Source: Actinomadura parmotrematis
GTDB lineage: Bacteria > Actinomycetota > Actinomycetes > Streptosporangiales > Streptosporangiaceae
Length of the DNA stretch: 64,000 bases
Direction of reading: 5' to 3'
NCBI RefSeq assembly: GCF_019458805.1
Contig: NZ_JAIBOA010000025.1
Coordinates: forward strand, 1-64,000
Below the pieces are notes generated by a model. That model worked only from the letters and a program-made list of their open reading frames with translations. It was not told the origin of the DNA and did no database searches. The position numbers and the translations under genes were made by a program. Below, one piece after another: positions 42,264-49,057 of the stretch. Position 1 is the first letter of the stretch. Each line of letters begins with the position of its first letter.

Positions 42264-42335
42264 ATGGACGCAGCGATCGACCTCGTGGCACGGCGCCACA
42301 TCGATCTGCTCCGCGTGTGCAGCGCCCGCTGTTGA
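42264..42335 (+). CDS. Cysteine-containing leader peptide
   Basis: This 23-codon ORF ends RRHIDLLRVCSARC and then stops. The pattern R-H-I-D-L-x-R-V-x-S-A-x-C is that of the conserved actinobacterial leader peptide found before sulfur-assimilation operons. There, ribosome progress through the cysteine codons is thought to report cysteine supply (cysteine-codon leaders are shown to act this way in mycobacteria). It lies 156 bases before the sulfonate permease gene. The intervening leader is C-rich and G-poor in places, compatible with Rho-dependent attenuation (inference). Confidence 0.82.
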   Translation: MDAAIDLVARRHIDLLRVCSARC

Positions 42336-42491: not shown

Positions 42492-43349
42492 ATGTCCGTC
42501 GACGTCCTCGATCCACCCGCCGGTGCGCCGGCGTCCGCCGCGGGGCCGCCGGTCCCGGCGGCCCGGCGCCGCGCCGCCGCCCGGTCCCGCTCGCTCGCGC
42601 GCACCGCGCGCCGCCTCAGCGGCCTGGTGATCGTCCTGGCGGCCTGGCAGGCCGGCGCGTCGGCCGGGCTGCTCGGCTCGACGACGCCCTCGCCCGCGCA
42701 GGTCGTCGCGGCGGCCGGGCGGCTGGTGGAGTCCGGCGAGCTGGCCGCCAACCTCGGCGTCTCGCTGCTGCGGGTGCTGAAGGGCCTGGCGATCGGCCTG
42801 TCCGCCGGGCTGGTGCTCGGCCTCGCCGCCGGGCTCGCGCGGCTCGGCGAGGACCTGGTGGACGCGCCCGTGCAGGCGGTGCGGATGCTGCCGCACCTCG
42901 CGCTCGTGCCGCTGTTCATCATCTGGTTCGGCATCGGCGAGACCTCCAAGGTGTCGCTCATCGCCGTCGGCGTGGTGTTCCCGCTCTACATCAACGTCTT
43001 CCACGGCATCCGCGGCGTGGACGAGCGGCTCGTCGAGTCGGCGCGGTCCTGCGGCGTCGGCCGGTTCGGCCTCATCACCAAGGTGGTGCTGCCGGGCGCG
43101 CTGCCGCAGATCCTCGTCGGCCTGCGGCAGGCGCTCGGCGTCGCCTGGCTCAGCCTCGTCGTCGCCGAGCAGTCGGCGACGAGCGCGGGCATCGGCTACC
43201 TGATCAACCAGGCGACGCAGTTCATGCGGACCGACGAGGTGTTCGTCGTCCTCGTCGTCTACGCGCTGCTCGGCCTGGCCACCGACCTGCTGGTGCGCGC
43301 CGTGGAGCGGCGGGCGCTGGCCTGGCGGCGGGGGCTGGTCGCGCGATGA
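42492..43349 (+). CDS. Sulfonate-type ABC importer permease (SsuC-like)
   Basis: This 285-residue BPD_transp_1 permease has a basic Ala/Arg-rich tail of about 45 residues and about six membrane helices. The coupling loop is GVDERLVESARSCGVGRFG. It is the first structural gene after the leader peptide and overlaps the ATPase gene by four bases. Sulfonate specificity is inferred from the leader peptide and the family. Confidence 0.9.
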   Translation: MSVDVLDPPAGAPASAAGPPVPAARRRAAARSRSLARTARRLSGLVIVLAAWQAGASAGLLGSTTPSPAQVVAAAGRLVESGELAANLGVSLLRVLKGLAIGLSAGLVLGLAAGLARLGEDLVDAPVQAVRMLPHLALVPLFIIWFGIGETSKVSLIAVGVVFPLYINVFHGIRGVDERLVESARSCGVGRFGLITKVVLPGALPQILVGLRQALGVAWLSLVVAEQSATSAGIGYLINQATQFMRTDEVFVVLVVYALLGLATDLLVRAVERRALAWRRGLVAR

Positions 43350-44062
43350 CCGTCACCCTGCACGAGGGCGTGCGCGTCCGCGGCCTCTCCCGGTCCTTCG
43401 GGGACCGGACGGTGCTGGACCGCGTCGACCTCGACATCGCGCCCGGCGAGTTCGTCGCGCTGCTCGGCGCGAGCGGCTCGGGCAAGAGCACGCTGCTGCG
43501 CGCGCTCGGCGGCCTCGACCCGCAGGCGGGCGGCGACCTCGGCCTGCCCGACCGCAAGGCCGTCGTCTACCAGGAGCACCGCCTGCTGCCCTGGGCGCGG
43601 GTGTGGAAGAACGTCGTCCTCGGGGTGAAGGGCCCGGATCTGAAGGCCCGCGCCGTCGCCGCCCTCACCGAGGTCGGGCTGAAGGACCGCGCGGAGGCGT
43701 GGCCGCTCACCCTGTCGGGCGGCGAGTCGCAGCGCGTCGCCCTCGCCCGCGCCCTGGTGCGCACCCCGCAGCTGCTGCTGCTGGACGAGCCGTTCGGCGC
43801 GCTCGACGCGCTCACCCGGATGAAGGCGCAGGAGCTCGTCGCCGACCTGTGGGCCGAGCACCGGCCCGCCGTCCTGCTCGTCACCCACGACGTCGAGGAG
43901 GCCCTCCTGCTCGCCGACCGGGCGCTGCTGCTCGCGGACGGCCGCCTCGCCGAGGAGATCACCGTCGACCTGCCGCGCCCCCGCGCCCTGGACCACCCCG
44001 ACTTCGTCGCGCTGCGGCGCCGGCTGCTGAGCGGCCTCGGCGTCGAGAAGGAGAACCGATGA
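43346..44062 (+). CDS. Sulfonate-type ABC importer ATPase (SsuB-like)
   Basis: This 238-residue protein has Walker A GASGSGKS, Q-loop VVYQEHRLLPW, signature LSGGESQR, Walker B LLLLDEPFGALD and switch LVTHD. It is a complete single-domain ATPase working with the permease at 42492 and the binding protein at 46057. Its stop overlaps the start of the first AprA-like gene (ATGA), so transport and redox genes are translationally coupled. Confidence 0.92.
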   Translation: MTVTLHEGVRVRGLSRSFGDRTVLDRVDLDIAPGEFVALLGASGSGKSTLLRALGGLDPQAGGDLGLPDRKAVVYQEHRLLPWARVWKNVVLGVKGPDLKARAVAALTEVGLKDRAEAWPLTLSGGESQRVALARALVRTPQLLLLDEPFGALDALTRMKAQELVADLWAEHRPAVLLVTHDVEEALLLADRALLLADGRLAEEITVDLPRPRALDHPDFVALRRRLLSGLGVEKENR

Positions 44063-45657
44063 GCGAACTGGACCTGACCGCCGACGTCGTCGTCGCGGGG
44101 GGCGGCCCGGCCGCCGCGTGGGCGGCGGTGAAGGCCGCCGAGGCCGGCGCCGACGTCCTGGTGGTCGACAAGGGCCACCTCGGGACGTCCGGCGCGACCG
44201 CCGCCGCCGGCACCGGCGTCTGGTACGTCGCGCCGGACGCGGACGCGCGGGCCGCCGCCAAGGCGAGCCGCGAGACGCTCGGCGGCCACCTCGCCGACCA
44301 CGCCTGGATGGACCGCGTCCTCGACCAGACCTACGCCAACATGAACGAGCTCGCCGAGGTCGGCCGCTACCCGTTCCCCGTCGGGGCGGACGGGGCGCAG
44401 ATCCGCCGCGGGCTGCAGGGGCCGGAGTACATGCGGCGGATGCGGACGCGGGTGAAGCGCGCGGGCGCGCGCATCCTCGACCACAGCCCCGTCACCGAGC
44501 TGCTGGTGGACGCCGAGGGCGCCGTCGCGGGGCTCGCCGGGTACCGGCGGCAGCACGACCAGTCCTACCGGGTGCGCGCGGGGGCCGTCGTGCTGGCGAC
44601 GGGCGGCTGCGCGTTCCTCAGCAAGGCGCTCGGCTGCAACGTCAACACCGGCGACGGGGCGCTGTTCGCGGCTGAGGCGGGCGCGGACCTGTCCGGCATG
44701 GAGTTCTCCAACGCCTACGCGATCGCGCCGGAGTTCACCTCCGTCACCAAGACGGCGTTCTACTCGTTCGCGACGTTCTACCGGGGCGACGGCAGCGTCC
44801 TGGAGGGCGCGGGCAGCCAGCGCGGCCGGTCGGTGATCGCGCGGACGCTGCTGAGCGAGAAGGTCTACGCCCGCCTCGACCAGGCGACGCCCGAGGACAT
44901 GCTCGCGATGCGGCTCGCCCAGCCCAACTTCTTCCTGCCCTTCGACCGGCAGGGCATCGACCCGTTCCGCGACCTGTTCGCGGTGACGATGCTCGCCGAG
45001 GGCACCGTCCGCGGCACCGGCGGCATCCGCCTCACCGGCTTCGACTGCGCCACGTCCGTCCCCGGCCTGTACGCGGCGGGCGACGCGGCGACGCGCGAAC
45101 CCATCTGCGGCGGCTTCACCGGCGGCGGCAGCCACAACTCCGCCTGGGCCATGTCGTCGGGCACCTGGGCAGGGCAGGGCGCCGCGCGCCACGCACGCTC
45201 CCTCGGCTCGCGCGCGCTTGCCCGCACCACGCACGGCCTCGGCGGCGCCGGACTGCGCCCGGCCGGGACGCCCGGCGACCCGTCGGCCTTCAACGACGTC
45301 ATCAAGGCCGTGCAGAACGAGGTCATCCCCTACGACAAGAACCTCCTGCGGCACGGCGACCGCCTCGCCCCCGCGCTGTCCGTCCTGGACGAGGTGTGGC
45401 GCGACGTGCGCGCGTCGCTGCACGGCGAGAACGGCGATGTCGTGCGCGCGCGCTCGGCGGCGGCCATGACGGCGCACGCCCGCTGGATGTACAACGCCGC
45501 GCTCGCCCGCACCGAGACGCGCGGCATGCACAAGCGCCAGGACTTCCCCGACCTCGACCCCGCCCAGCACCACCGGCTCCTCACCGGCGGCCTGGACGAG
45601 GTGTGGACGGCGCCCGAGCCGGCCGCCCGCGGCGGCCTCGCGGCGGTGGCGTCGTGA
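44059..45657 (+). CDS. AprA-like FAD-dependent oxidoreductase 1
   Basis: This 532-residue flavoprotein belongs to the fumarate reductase/APS-reductase alpha-subunit superfamily. It has the Rossmann FAD loop VVVAGGGPAAAWAAVKAAEAG with VVDKG, the histidyl-region ATGGCAFLSKALG, DLSGMEFSNAY, the EGTVRGTGGI capping motif and the FAD-ribityl end VPGLYAAGDAAT. The length is below dissimilatory AprA (over 600), so surface loops are reduced. It is immediately coupled to a two-cluster ferredoxin, as AprA is to AprB. The substrate may be an imported organosulfur compound or sulfite; this is inference. Confidence 0.82.
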   Translation: MSELDLTADVVVAGGGPAAAWAAVKAAEAGADVLVVDKGHLGTSGATAAAGTGVWYVAPDADARAAAKASRETLGGHLADHAWMDRVLDQTYANMNELAEVGRYPFPVGADGAQIRRGLQGPEYMRRMRTRVKRAGARILDHSPVTELLVDAEGAVAGLAGYRRQHDQSYRVRAGAVVLATGGCAFLSKALGCNVNTGDGALFAAEAGADLSGMEFSNAYAIAPEFTSVTKTAFYSFATFYRGDGSVLEGAGSQRGRSVIARTLLSEKVYARLDQATPEDMLAMRLAQPNFFLPFDRQGIDPFRDLFAVTMLAEGTVRGTGGIRLTGFDCATSVPGLYAAGDAATREPICGGFTGGGSHNSAWAMSSGTWAGQGAARHARSLGSRALARTTHGLGGAGLRPAGTPGDPSAFNDVIKAVQNEVIPYDKNLLRHGDRLAPALSVLDEVWRDVRASLHGENGDVVRARSAAAMTAHARWMYNAALARTETRGMHKRQDFPDLDPAQHHRLLTGGLDEVWTAPEPAARGGLAAVAS

Positions 45658-46013
45658 TCGAGATCGTCTCCCGGGACCGCTGCATCGCCTGCGACAAGTG
45701 CATCGAGGTCTGCCCGACCGACGTGTTCGAGCGCGGCCCCGACGGCGTCCCCGTCCTCGCCCGGCAGGGCGACTGCCAGACCTGCTTCATGTGCGAGGCG
45801 TACTGCCCCGCCGACGCGCTGTTCGTCGCCCCGCAGTCGCACCGGCTGCCCGCCGGCTCGGAGCTGCTGGACGAGGCCCGCCTCGCCGAGCAGGGCCGCC
45901 TCGGCAGCTACCGCGCGCAGATCGGCTGGGGCAAGGGCCGCACGCCCGGCGCCGCCCGCGCCATCGGCCCGGCCCTGCCCGGCGCCGGACCGCGCGCCCC
46001 CCTCACCTCCTGA
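45654..46013 (+). CDS. AprB-like ferredoxin 1 (two [4Fe-4S])
   Basis: This 119-residue protein starts with GTG overlapping the flavoprotein stop. Two CxxCxxCxxxCP sites are present, CIACDKCIEVCP and CQTCFMCEAYCP, as in AprB. A C-terminal tail of about 55 residues (LGSYRAQIGWGKGRTPGAA) could wrap the flavoprotein, as the AprB tail does. It is the electron carrier partner of the preceding flavoprotein. Confidence 0.88.
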   Translation: MIEIVSRDRCIACDKCIEVCPTDVFERGPDGVPVLARQGDCQTCFMCEAYCPADALFVAPQSHRLPAGSELLDEARLAEQGRLGSYRAQIGWGKGRTPGAARAIGPALPGAGPRAPLTS

Positions 46014-46056
46014 CCGCCCCTCCTCCCCGACGTTCCACCCCCCGAAAGGCACGCCC

Positions 46057-47028
46057 GTGACATCCCGGTTCCTCAAAGCCGCCCTCGCCGTCCTGCTGCC
46101 CGTCACCGGCGCGGCCGCGTGCGGCACCTCCGACGCGGCCGACGCCCTCACCCTGCGGATCGGCGTGATCAGCGCGGGCAAGGTCGTCAAGCTGGGCGGC
46201 GCCGCCGGCTACCTCGACAGCAAGGGCGAGCTGCTGCCCGAGCTGAAGGGCCTCGGCATCACCAAGATCAAGGTGGCGACGTTCCAGAACGGGCCCGACC
46301 TGAACCAGGCCCTCGCCGGCGGCTCCCTCGACCTCGGCGTCTACGGCGACACCCCCGCCCTCGTCGGCCGCGGCACGAAGCTGCCGACCCGCCTGATCTC
46401 GCAGCCGGGCGTCGGGCTGGACGCCGCCGTCGTCACCAAGAAGGGCGGCGTGTCCTCGCTGAAGGAGCTGGAGGGCAAGAAGATCGGCGTGCAGGTCGGC
46501 TCCTACATCCACCGCTACCTGCTCGGCGCCCTCCAGCAGGCCGGCGTGCACGCCACCCTCGTCAACATGTACACGCCCGCCATCGTCGCGGCCCTGGAGA
46601 AGGGCGCCATCGACGCCGGCGGCCTCGTCTCGGCCAACGTCGAGATCGAGCGCCGCAAGGGCCTGCCGGTGATCGACACGGCGTCCCGCGACCACCCCGA
46701 CCTGCTCGGCACCACCGCCACCGTCGTCACCCAGAAGTTCCTGGACGCCCACCCCGGCATCGTCAAGAGCTGGCAGAACGTCGAGCGGACGGGCGCGCGG
46801 GCCGCCAAGGCCGACTGGACCGGCTACACCGGCTACCTCGCCTCCATCGGCGGCTACCCCGCCGACATCACCGCCAAGACGACGCTGCGCAGCCAGGTCG
46901 CCGACCAGCCCTTCACCCCTCAAGGCCTGAAGCTGCTGGAGGGCACCAAGGCGTTCCTCGTCCAGCAGAAGCTCATCCCGGCCGACTACCCGCTGGACTC
47001 CTGGATCGCGCCGGGGGCGCGCGGGTGA
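46057..47028 (+). CDS. Sulfonate-type substrate-binding protein (SsuA/TauA-like)
   Basis: This 323-residue protein has a signal sequence and a weak lipobox (TGAAAC). The mature part has LTLRIGVISAGKVVKLGGA, NQALAGGSLDLGVYGDTPALVG and LEGKKIGVQVGSYIH, typical of aliphatic-sulfonate and taurine binders. It lies between the two AprAB-like pairs, 43 bp after ferredoxin 1, and overlaps flavoprotein 2 (GTGA), so all seven genes look like one operon. Confidence 0.88.
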   Translation: MTSRFLKAALAVLLPVTGAAACGTSDAADALTLRIGVISAGKVVKLGGAAGYLDSKGELLPELKGLGITKIKVATFQNGPDLNQALAGGSLDLGVYGDTPALVGRGTKLPTRLISQPGVGLDAAVVTKKGGVSSLKELEGKKIGVQVGSYIHRYLLGALQQAGVHATLVNMYTPAIVAALEKGAIDAGGLVSANVEIERRKGLPVIDTASRDHPDLLGTTATVVTQKFLDAHPGIVKSWQNVERTGARAAKADWTGYTGYLASIGGYPADITAKTTLRSQVADQPFTPQGLKLLEGTKAFLVQQKLIPADYPLDSWIAPGARG

Positions 47029-48707
47029 CGGCGACCGACCTGACCACCGACGTCCTGGTCCTCGGCGGCGGCCCCGCCGGGACCTGGGCGGCGGTGGCCG
47101 CCGCCGCGGCCGGCGCCCGCGTCGTCCTCGCCGACAAGGGCTACTGCGGGACGAGCGGCTCGGCCGCCGCGGGCGGCAACAACCTCTGGTACGTCCCGCC
47201 CGACCCCGCCGCCCGCGAGGCGGCGGTGACCGCGCGCCTGCGGAGCAGCCTCGGCCTCGCCGACACCGGCTGGATGGCGCGCGTCCTGGCGGAGACCCAC
47301 CTGCGCGTCGGCGACCTCGCCGCCTGGGGCTACCCCTTCCCCCGCGACGACGCGGGCGCCGAGCGGCGCGGCAGCCTCCAGGGACCGGAGTACATGCGGC
47401 GGATGCGCCGCCGCGTGCACCGCGGCGGCGTCACGATCCTGGACCACGCGCCCGCGCTGCGGCTGCTGCGCGGCGCGGACGGCGCCGCGGTGGGCGCCGC
47501 CGGCCTGCACCGGCAGGACGGCGGGCGGCCCTGGACGGTCCGCGCGGGCGCCGTCGTCCTCGCCACCGGCGGCTGCGCGTTCCTGTCCGGCGCGTTCGGC
47601 CTGAACGTCGACACCGGCGACGGGCACCTGATGGCCGCCGAGCTCGGCGCCGACCTGTCGGGCATGGAGTTCTCCGCCGCCTACGCCCTCTCGCCCGCCC
47701 ACGGCGCGCACACCAAGGGCCTGATGATGATGTTCGCGACCTACTCGCTGGACGACGGCACCGTCCTCGACCTGCCGGACCCCCTCGCCGGCCGCGACCG
47801 CGTCGCGGCGCTGCTCGCCGAGGGCCGCACGGTGCACGCGCGGCTCGACCGGGCGCCCGCGCACCTGCGGCAGGCCATGCGGCAGGCCCAGCCCAACTAC
47901 TTCCTGCCGCTGGACAAGGCCGGCATCGACCCCTTCCGCGACCGCTACCCCGTCCGCATGGTGCTGGAGGGCACCGTCCGCGGCACCGGCGGCCTCCGCA
48001 TCGCCGGCGCGGACTGCGCCACGTCCGTCCCCGGGCTGTTCGCCGCGGGCGACGTCGCCACCCGCGAGCTCGTCAGCGGCGCGGTCAGCGGCGGCGGCGC
48101 CTACAACGGCGCCTGGGCGATCTCCTCGGGCACCTGGGCGGGCCGCGGCGCCGCGGCCTTCGCCCGCGCCGGCGTCCAGGACGGCGCCCCGCCCGCCGGC
48201 GCCGCCGGCCTCGCGGCGGGCCGCACCCGGCCCGCCGACGTCGTCGAGGGCGTCCAGCGCGAGACCCTGCCCCTGGACCGCAACTACTTCCGCACCCCCG
48301 CCGGCCTCCGCCGCTCCCTCGCGGCCCTCGACGACCTCTGGCGCGCGACCCGCGAGGGCCTCGCCGCCCCCACCCACCGCGACCGCCTGCGCGCCCGCGA
48401 AGCGGCCGCCCTCGTCGCCCACGCCCGCTGGATGTACACCGCCGCCCTCGCCCGCCCCGAGACCCGCGGCCTCCACCGCCTGACCGGCCACCCCACCGAC
48501 CCCGCCCTCCGGCACCGCATCCGCGTCGGCGGCCTCGACGACCTCTGGACGTCCCCCGAGCCCTCCGCCCGCGAGACCAGCACGGTCGCCGGAACGACCG
48601 CAACGTCCCGGGCGGCCGCGGCGGTCGTAGGGCTTGGCACGACCGCCGCGGCGCCCGATGGGACAGCGGTGCCGGGCGCGTCCGCGGCGGCGGAGGCGGG
48701 ACGGTGA
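47025..48707 (+). CDS. AprA-like FAD-dependent oxidoreductase 2
   Basis: This 560-residue paralogue of the gene at 44059 has FAD loop LGGGPAGTWAAVAAAAAGARV and shared blocks LQGPEYMRRMR, VVLATGGCAFLS, EGTVRGTGG, DCATSVPGLFAAGD and SSGTWAGRGAA. A poorly conserved Ala/Thr-rich tail of about 50 residues follows the common end (DDLWTSPEP), a difference from copy 1. Retention of both copies with clear divergence suggests distinct substrates or a heteromeric complex rather than recent duplication. Confidence 0.82.
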   Translation: MTATDLTTDVLVLGGGPAGTWAAVAAAAAGARVVLADKGYCGTSGSAAAGGNNLWYVPPDPAAREAAVTARLRSSLGLADTGWMARVLAETHLRVGDLAAWGYPFPRDDAGAERRGSLQGPEYMRRMRRRVHRGGVTILDHAPALRLLRGADGAAVGAAGLHRQDGGRPWTVRAGAVVLATGGCAFLSGAFGLNVDTGDGHLMAAELGADLSGMEFSAAYALSPAHGAHTKGLMMMFATYSLDDGTVLDLPDPLAGRDRVAALLAEGRTVHARLDRAPAHLRQAMRQAQPNYFLPLDKAGIDPFRDRYPVRMVLEGTVRGTGGLRIAGADCATSVPGLFAAGDVATRELVSGAVSGGGAYNGAWAISSGTWAGRGAAAFARAGVQDGAPPAGAAGLAAGRTRPADVVEGVQRETLPLDRNYFRTPAGLRRSLAALDDLWRATREGLAAPTHRDRLRAREAAALVAHARWMYTAALARPETRGLHRLTGHPTDPALRHRIRVGGLDDLWTSPEPSARETSTVAGTTATSRAAAAVVGLGTTAAAPDGTAVPGASAAAEAGR

Positions 48708-49057
48708 TCGAGGTCGTTCGCGCCGGGGCCTGCGTGGCGTGCGACATCTGCATCAAGGTGTGCCCGACCGACGTGTTCGAGCGGGGCGCGGACGGCGTCC
48801 CCGTCATCGCGCGGCAGCCGGACTGCCAGACCTGCTTCATGTGCGAGGCCAACTGCCCGACCGACGCGCTGTACGTCGCGCCGCTCTCCGGCCCGGCGCC
48901 CGCCGGGTCGCCGCAGGCCGACCAGGCCGCGCTGGAGGAGGCGGGCGCGTTCGGCGCCTACCGGGAGCTGATCGGCTGGGGCGGGGGCCGCACGCCGGGC
49001 AGCCGCCTGGACCGCAACCACGTGTTCACCGCGATGCTGGAGCGCGGCGGCCCCTGA
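48704..49057 (+). CDS. AprB-like ferredoxin 2 (two [4Fe-4S])
   Basis: This 117-residue paralogue of ferredoxin 1 has cluster sites CVACDICIKVCP and CQTCFMCEANCP and the common tail FGAYRELIGWGGGRTPGS. It is translationally coupled to flavoprotein 2 and ends the operon. The shared phrase IGWG-x-GRTPG in both ferredoxin tails marks this AprB-like subfamily. Confidence 0.88.
   Translation: MIEVVRAGACVACDICIKVCPTDVFERGADGVPVIARQPDCQTCFMCEANCPTDALYVAPLSGPAPAGSPQADQAALEEAGAFGAYRELIGWGGGRTPGSRLDRNHVFTAMLERGGP

What the first reader, a model, noticed from the sequence alone, without database searches (positions are those of the whole stretch)
44059..49057. Two divergent AprA/AprB-like pairs built into a sulfonate-import operon
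Seen: the order is permease, ATPase, flavoprotein 1, ferredoxin 1, binding protein, flavoprotein 2, ferredoxin 2, nearly all coupled by 4-base overlaps. Each ferredoxin has two CxxCxxCxxxCP sites and a tail containing IGWG-x-GRTPG; both flavoproteins share blocks such as ATGGCAFLS and EGTVRGTGG. Known: dissimilatory APS reductase AprAB interconverts APS and sulfite plus AMP, and ssu operons normally use the flavin monooxygenase SsuD, absent here. Inference: these pairs are an alternative redox step for imported organosulfur compounds, possibly sulfite/APS chemistry or reductive desulfonation, with two substrate specificities.
Basis: partly seen in the sequence, partly recalled or inferred. Interest (0 to 1): 0.75.

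Follow-up and report, generated by a model that had tools for sequence, protein, structure and literature searches.

The report
Sulfonate-uptake operon with two AsfAB pairs
This bacterium carries an operon, apparently controlled by cysteine supply, for scavenging sulfur from organic sulfonates, in which two copies of a known but poorly understood flavoprotein-ferredoxin pair (AsfAB), not an APS reductase and not an oxygenase, accompany the importer.

Summary
At 42492-49057 seven genes run permease, ATPase, flavoprotein 1, ferredoxin 1, binding protein, flavoprotein 2, ferredoxin 2; five of six junctions are 4-base overlaps. Relatives sit in sulfur-scavenging islands: 73 of 80 loci, against 0 of 18 arbitrary control regions.

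They are not AprAB: AprA N74, W234 and H398 are kept in 0 of 50 rows and R265 in 1 of 50, while three AprA and two PAPS-reductase-like proteins keep all four; the ferredoxin lacks the AprB electron-transfer Trp. The pair matches AsfA/AsfB, the 'reductase-ferredoxin' that Pseudomonas putida S-313 needs for aromatic sulfonates (passages; placed).

What looks new: two long-diverged AsfAB pairs in one operon, the same layout in Paenibacillus, no oxygenase gene, and AsfA shown to be a fumarate-reductase-fold protein with its own invariant residues. I infer that AsfA is a catalytic subunit fed by AsfB rather than an NAD(P)H reductase. No substrate or reaction is shown.

The parts
42264..42335 (+). 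leader ORF of 23 codons plus stop, MDAAIDLVARRHIDLLRVCSARC
   Evidence: sequence; NCBIfam NF042936 Ms4527A Cys-rich leader peptide E 7.1e-9, 35.1 bits (cut-off 45), and NF042934 putative leader peptide E 8.7e-5, 22 bits (cut-off 27); near-identical leader (LLRVCSA type) in 13 of 80 relatives, any leader of this type in 24 of 80 relatives and 0 of 18 controls
42492..43349 (+). ABC permease, SsuC-like
   Evidence: PF00528; best NCBIfam SsuC 234.6 bits, cut-off 347
43346..44062 (+). ABC ATPase, SsuB-like
   Evidence: PF00005; best NCBIfam SsuB 242.1 bits, cut-off 395
44059..45657 (+). flavoprotein 1, AsfA-type (AsfA1)
   Evidence: FAD_binding_2 and Succ_DH_flav_C; AsfA match; tree; model pLDDT 86.4, pTM 0.90
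45654..46013 (+). 2[4Fe-4S] ferredoxin 1, AsfB-type (AsfB1)
   Evidence: two CxxCxxCxxxCP sites; Fer4 families; A4 alignment of 39 rows
46057..47028 (+). substrate-binding protein, SsuA/NMT1 type (position of AsfC)
   Evidence: PF09084; best NCBIfam SsuA_fam 102.3 bits, cut-off 163.5
47025..48707 (+). flavoprotein 2, AsfA-type of the second clade (AsfA2)
   Evidence: 55% identical to flavoprotein 1; separate clade
48704..49057 (+). 2[4Fe-4S] ferredoxin 2, AsfB-type (AsfB2)
   Evidence: 63% identical to ferredoxin 1; A4

Best explanation
The locus is an actinobacterial asf-type operon for using organic sulfonates as sulfur source. A leader ORF rich in rare Cys codons probably lets the operon be made when cysteine is scarce (inferred from the leader family). 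The SsuABC-like transporter imports the sulfonate (inferred from homology). AsfB, a cytoplasmic 2[4Fe-4S] ferredoxin, is the fixed electron partner of AsfA (gene coupling and co-divergence shown; electron flow inferred). AsfA, a fumarate-reductase-fold flavoprotein with a conserved Arg/Glu/Tyr set of its own, most likely acts directly on the imported sulfonate with electrons from AsfB, so that sulfite is released and enters the genome's own sulfite reductase (inferred). The two AsfAB pairs are long-diverged and probably handle different substrates or steps (inferred). My odds: asf-type sulfonate operon about 0.85; AsfA catalytic rather than an electron shuttle, given that, about 0.6; direction and chemistry of the step unknown.
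For: Sulfur context: SsuABC-, TauD-, LLM- or SfnB-type genes within 8 kb in 73 of 80 relatives, two or more types in 60, 0 of 18 controls; without the six loci that supplied reference sequences 67 of 74 and 55 of 74. Minimal unit: 19 of 80 loci have the whole transporter and no TauD/LLM/SfnB type. Leader; in this genome leaders of the type also precede an SsuD-like gene (C17), a sulfite reductase-CysH operon (C34) and a binding protein-permease-TauD operon (C9). AsfAB: PMC4267179 passage: asf cluster = binding protein, transporter, reductase/ferredoxin, LysR; an asfA mutant lost aromatic but not aliphatic sulfonates. PMC2864759 passages: AsfA/AsfB of Cupriavidus metallidurans CH34 = Rmet_4334/5 on CHR2; the one strong match on that replicon (848.5 bits; next 73.2) lies at 928 kb with the ferredoxin beside it, about 5 kb from the place interpolated for Rmet_4334 from six TauD genes. 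Pairing: 103 of 106 adjacent, distance matrices correlate r 0.874, 0 of 500 shuffles as high. Fold: SDH/FRD/NadB/PAPSR/APSR superfamily. Catalytic role: W21, Y124, R129, Y220, E314, T316, R318, R346, E347 and W363 identical in 50 of 50 rows, several at or beside the place of the superfamily's catalytic residues; only FAD-binding and SDH C-terminal domains are sensible Pfam hits.
Against: The review in PMC4267179 assigns the reductase/ferredoxin to electron transfer during oxygenation of the C-S bond and says asf complements ssu, so an oxygenase elsewhere in the cell may do the cleavage; 45 of 80 loci do carry an oxygenase-type gene, and this genome has SsuD-like and TauD genes elsewhere. AsfA identity rests on interpolation, not on a labelled sequence. 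No LysR gene (asfR) was found by Pfam among 9 neighbours in the window or 10 ORFs around the CH34 pair. Seven of 80 loci show none of the sought genes and three Nostoc loci lack the ferredoxin. The model is poor (pLDDT < 50) at 46-50, 185-196 and 316-320, which includes R318. No substrate is known for this operon.
Confidence: 0.6

Rival explanations
1. AsfAB is only an electron-transfer chain: AsfA takes electrons from a donor and AsfB passes them to an oxygenase (SsuD-, TauD- or another type) that cleaves the C-S bond, as the literature supposes for P. putida S-313.
For: Passages in PMC4267179 and PMC2864759; oxygenase-type genes in 45 of 80 loci; SsuD-like and TauD genes elsewhere in this genome.
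Against: AsfA has the fumarate-reductase fold, whose flavoprotein subunits carry the substrate site, with no NAD(P)H:ferredoxin-reductase domain among the Pfam hits; 19 of 80 loci have transporter plus AsfAB and no sought oxygenase type; two long-diverged copies are kept in one operon. TauD and SsuD are not known (recalled) to need a ferredoxin.
Confidence: 0.28
2. AprAB-like chemistry: the pairs interconvert sulfite plus AMP and APS (or reduce APS/PAPS).
For: Same two-subunit architecture (FAD subunit plus 2[4Fe-4S] subunit); Mt PAPS reductase alpha and beta are among the PDB matches; sulfur context.
Against: AprA N74, W234, H398 kept in 0 of 50 rows, R265 in 1 of 50; AprB Trp replaced by Gln and first Cys spacing different; TIGR02061 not reported for these genes at E <= 1e-3; 0 hits of Sat, QmoA, CysH or Sir queries at 1e-10 in 90 loci; long branch to AprA/PAPSR-like rows.
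Confidence: 0.03
3. The pair acts on the carbon skeleton (a dehydrogenase or reductase of the desulfonated product or of an intermediate), as its fumarate-reductase relatives do, and not on the sulfonate.
For: Fold and best family models are L-aspartate oxidase and fumarate reductase.
Against: Positions of the superfamily's dicarboxylate-binding His and Arg are not kept (Y220, V317, S/A358; the role of those positions is recalled); leader and context point to sulfur supply, where the carbon product is usually discarded (recalled).
Confidence: 0.09

Closest known systems
AsfA/AsfB of the asfRABC aromatic-sulfonate cluster (Pseudomonas putida S-313; AsfA/AsfB Rmet_4334/5 of Cupriavidus metallidurans CH34)
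   Same: Flavoprotein-ferredoxin gene pair; 60.7% identity of the CH34 flavoprotein to flavoprotein 1 over 92% of it and 48% for the ferredoxin; ABC sulfonate-type transporter; sulfur starvation context.
   Different: Two diverged pairs in one operon with the transporter; a Cys-leader and no LysR gene among tested neighbours; no oxygenase gene in the operon.
Dissimilatory APS reductase AprAB and Methanothermococcus PAPS reductase (8a8o)
   Same: FAD subunit of the fumarate-reductase superfamily plus a small 2[4Fe-4S] subunit with a C-terminal tail.
   Different: Active-site residues and the AprB Trp are absent; about 17-19% identity by structure alignment.
Fumarate reductase / succinate dehydrogenase flavoprotein and L-aspartate oxidase
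   Same: Fold: Z 40.2 (FrdA 6b58_C, rmsd 3.4, 480 aligned), 37.6 (NadB 1knp).
   Different: Substrate-binding His and Arg positions not kept; partner is a 2[4Fe-4S] ferredoxin.
ssuEADCB and tauABCD sulfonate operons
   Same: Same transporter type and starvation role.
   Different: AsfAB pairs stand where SsuD or TauD would be.

Membership tests
AsfAB (aromatic-sulfonate desulfurization pair) | AsfA homologue at the place reported for a named AsfA | tested here: met
   Single strong match on CH34 CHR2 (848.5 bits, next 73.2) at 928 kb; Rmet_4334 interpolated at 923 kb from six TauD genes assigned by order. The record carries no annotation, so this is by position and uniqueness.
AsfAB (aromatic-sulfonate desulfurization pair) | ferredoxin gene next to asfA | tested here: met
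   4-base overlaps at both pairs; 103 of 106 relatives
AsfAB (aromatic-sulfonate desulfurization pair) | sulfonate-type binding protein and transporter in the cluster | tested here: met
AsfAB (aromatic-sulfonate desulfurization pair) | required for growth on aromatic sulfonates | not testable with these tools
   known only for P. putida S-313 by the passage seen
asfRABC cluster as in P. putida S-313 | LysR regulator asfR next to asfA | tested here: not met
   no LysR family among 9 neighbouring ORFs scanned; I therefore file the genes as AsfAB-type, not the operon as a copy of asfRABC
AprAB | AprA residues N74, W234, R265, H398 | tested here: not met
   0, 0, 1 and 0 of 50 rows; residue roles from passages of PMC2211403
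AprAB | AprB Trp between cluster and FAD (Trp-B48) | tested here: not met
   CWEC/CWDC in AprB and PAPSR-like beta, CQTC in these ferredoxins
AprAB | curated model TIGR02061 over cut-off | tested here: not met
   not reported at E <= 1e-3
Fumarate reductase/SDH/NadB superfamily | fold of the flavoprotein | tested here: met
Ms4527A Cys-rich leader peptides | NCBIfam NF042936 cut-off 45 bits | tested here: not met
   35.1 bits, E 7.1e-9: related, not over the cut-off

The most novel reading that the evidence does not exclude
AsfAB is a ferredoxin-driven flavoenzyme that itself releases sulfite from sulfonates in a fumarate-reductase-fold active site, without a separate oxygenase: either a reduced-FAD attack on sulfur comparable in outline to APS reductase but evolved separately, or a ferredoxin-fed flavin monooxygenase; and this operon, with two diverged pairs and its own importer, is a complete sulfonate-to-sulfite module.
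Probability: 0.25. Interest if true: 0.75.

Novelty: new variant of a known kind. Interest (0 to 1): 0.48.

Why it matters
PMC4267179 describes sulfonates and sulfate esters as the major organic sulfur forms in soil and asfA as the marker gene for aromatic desulfonation, yet AsfA's own reaction was not described in the passages I saw. Placing AsfA in the fumarate-reductase superfamily, listing its invariant residues, and finding compact transporter-AsfAB operons without oxygenases makes the question 'shuttle or enzyme?' directly testable with two purified subunits.

Tried and rejected
AprAB membership: rejected. PAPS-reductase-type: rejected on the same residues, which two PAPSR-like proteins of this phylum keep. 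An AprA query hits three of the 90 loci, but the hit genes are another flavoprotein family (PRK13800-like), not the AsfA genes.

Results that weaken the case: the leader pattern alone is not specific (8 hits against 4 for the reversed control); only after reading the ORFs do five look like leaders. Reference sequences were partly taken from test loci, hence the recount. One search kept the best 80 of 495 relatives, so the 80 are the closest ones. The family is patchy: strong matches (E < 1e-100) in 11 of 100 genomes of the family, own included, and 2 of 296 in a phylum sample, own included, where only four candidates per genome were scored. The tree is a quick one (SH-aLRT only), with long-branch warnings. 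Catalytic-column counts depend on one MAFFT alignment; in a smaller one the N74 column carries W in these proteins.

Papers: passages only of PMC4633059, PMC8557817, PMC7661421, PMC2211403, PMC13236596, PMC4267179 (105, with its abstract), PMC2864759; passages and section 9 of PMC10322725. Vermeij 1999 and Canestrari 2020 were not read.

A mistake mended: the leader was first scanned one base out of frame, then correctly. Scripts 62 (crashed) and 84 (too verbose) gave little.
Full report
What is there. The transporter genes are nearest to SsuC, SsuB and SsuA-type models, below the curated cut-offs.

Relatives. One search found 495 relatives of the flavoproteins in the GTDB contigs and kept the best 80: mainly Streptomyces, Actinomadura, Nonomuraea, Nocardia, Rhodococcus, Lentzea, Saccharothrix, with Mycobacterium, Paenibacillus and Nostoc/Anabaena. 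Plasmid records add Rhizobium, Azospirillum, Paracoccus, Cupriavidus, Sphingobium and others (59 records); the nine annotated regions read of ten fetched show 'FAD-binding protein' and a ferredoxin or 4Fe-4S protein beside each other, mostly with ABC transporter, LLM, TauD, SfnB or other sulfur genes (the tenth has no annotation).

Pairing. Of 106 flavoprotein rows 103 have the ferredoxin gene directly downstream, 94 with a 4-base overlap; distance matrices of the two proteins correlate at r 0.874, 0 of 500 shuffles as high. This is what subunits of one enzyme look like.

Sulfur context. In 73 of 80 loci at least one of six sought types (SsuC-, SsuB-like, SsuA/NMT1-type, TauD, LLM, SfnB/DszC) lies within the fetched flank, in 60 two or more; 0 of 18 controls (without source loci 67 and 55 of 74). 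Curated support for single neighbours: SfnG over cut-off, SfnB over cut-off and an NtaA/DmoA monooxygenase over cut-off; the TauD-type best model is taurine dioxygenase, below cut-off. 58 of 80 loci have the complete transporter; 19 of these have no sought oxygenase type.

Regulation. The leader scores E 7e-9 against NCBIfam's Ms4527A Cys-rich leader, below its cut-off. Leaders of the type occur in 24 of 80 relatives and 0 of 18 controls. In this genome five ORFs look like such leaders; they precede this operon, an SsuD-like gene, a sulfite reductase-CysH operon, a binding protein-permease-TauD operon, and a HEAT-repeat gene. Passages of PMC4633059 propose Cys-rich uORFs as attenuators in mycobacteria, and PMC13236596 cites work showing it for cysteine genes. 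That our leader senses cysteine is inference.

What the proteins are not. Using three AprA proteins and two PAPS-reductase-like proteins found in the same phylum and residue roles from PMC2211403, the alignment of 50 flavoprotein rows keeps N74, W234 and H398 in none and R265 in one; all five reference proteins keep all four. The loop that carries W234 is missing. The ferredoxin has CQTC where AprB has CWEC. The tree puts AprA and PAPSR-like rows on a long separate branch.

What they are. Passages of PMC4267179 describe the P. putida S-313 asf cluster as binding protein, transporter, reductase/ferredoxin and LysR regulator, with asfA mutants losing aromatic but not aliphatic sulfonates. Passages of PMC2864759 give AsfA/AsfB of C. 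metallidurans CH34 as Rmet_4334/5, and six TauD genes with their numbers. The CHR2 record has exactly six TauD matches; assigning them by order, Rmet_4334 falls at 923 kb. The only strong match of my flavoprotein profile there is at 928 kb, with its ferredoxin beside it and a binding protein-ATPase-permease set next to that; I saw no other such pair by eye in the filtered ORF list of the 30 kb around. The assignment is therefore strong but positional.

Two pairs. 16 of 80 loci, one plasmid record and the window hold two flavoproteins. The second flavoproteins form a clade of their own (17 of 18 second copies in a 22-row set, support 98), which also holds three of four Paenibacillus second copies and single copies of Alphaproteobacteria and a Nostoc plasmid. 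So the two pairs are not a recent duplication, and the layout flavoprotein-ferredoxin-binding protein-flavoprotein-ferredoxin is shared with Paenibacillus. Transfer of the whole operon between phyla would explain this as well as common descent.

How it may work. AsfA folds like fumarate reductase, L-aspartate oxidase and the APS/PAPS reductase alpha subunits (model pLDDT 86.4, pTM 0.90). W21, Y124, R129, Y220, E314, T316, R318, R346, E347 and W363 are identical in 50 of 50 rows; V317 and the invariant R318 stand where the family's catalytic His stands, and Y220 where fumarate reductase and NadB have a His. R318 lies in a stretch the model does not place well (316-320). An anion-binding site is plausible, and no domain for NAD(P)H:ferredoxin reduction appears, so 'reductase' may be a misnomer. 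The catalytic reading is inference; the published view is electron transfer to an oxygenase.

Verdict. Observation confirmed; sulfur context right; AprAB wrong; family known (AsfAB); arrangement and structural placement look new.

Noticed in passing
L046 2435-5605, L031 2778-6053, L082 8826-9818 (partial), L010 and L018 (partial): A second, more AprA-like flavoprotein family (PRK13800-like, HEAT repeats at its C terminus) sits with binding protein, permease or ATPase genes in sulfonate islands; L046 keeps the AprA N74 and H398 positions but has Tyr and Leu at W234 and R265.
   Followed up: partly
own genome C13:88859-89707 (L192 6857-7747, - strand): A Cys-type leader ORF precedes a stand-alone HEAT-repeat gene that matches the C-terminal part of PRK13800 (177 bits), hinting at a sulfur role for that domain.
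   Followed up: partly
L068, L077, L079 (Nostoc): AsfA-type genes without a recognised ferredoxin gene in the fetched stretch; in L068 and L077 a further gene follows instead, in L068 an MFS-type transporter by eye.
   Followed up: no
L164 7081-8700 (- strand): A divergent family member of an unnamed actinobacterium with the EGTVRGTGG motif; no ferredoxin noticed beside it, not tested.
   Followed up: no
L159 2491-6908 and L160: Actinobacteriota with a PAPS-reductase-like alpha/beta pair; in L159 an ATP-sulfurylase-like ORF follows.
   Followed up: partly
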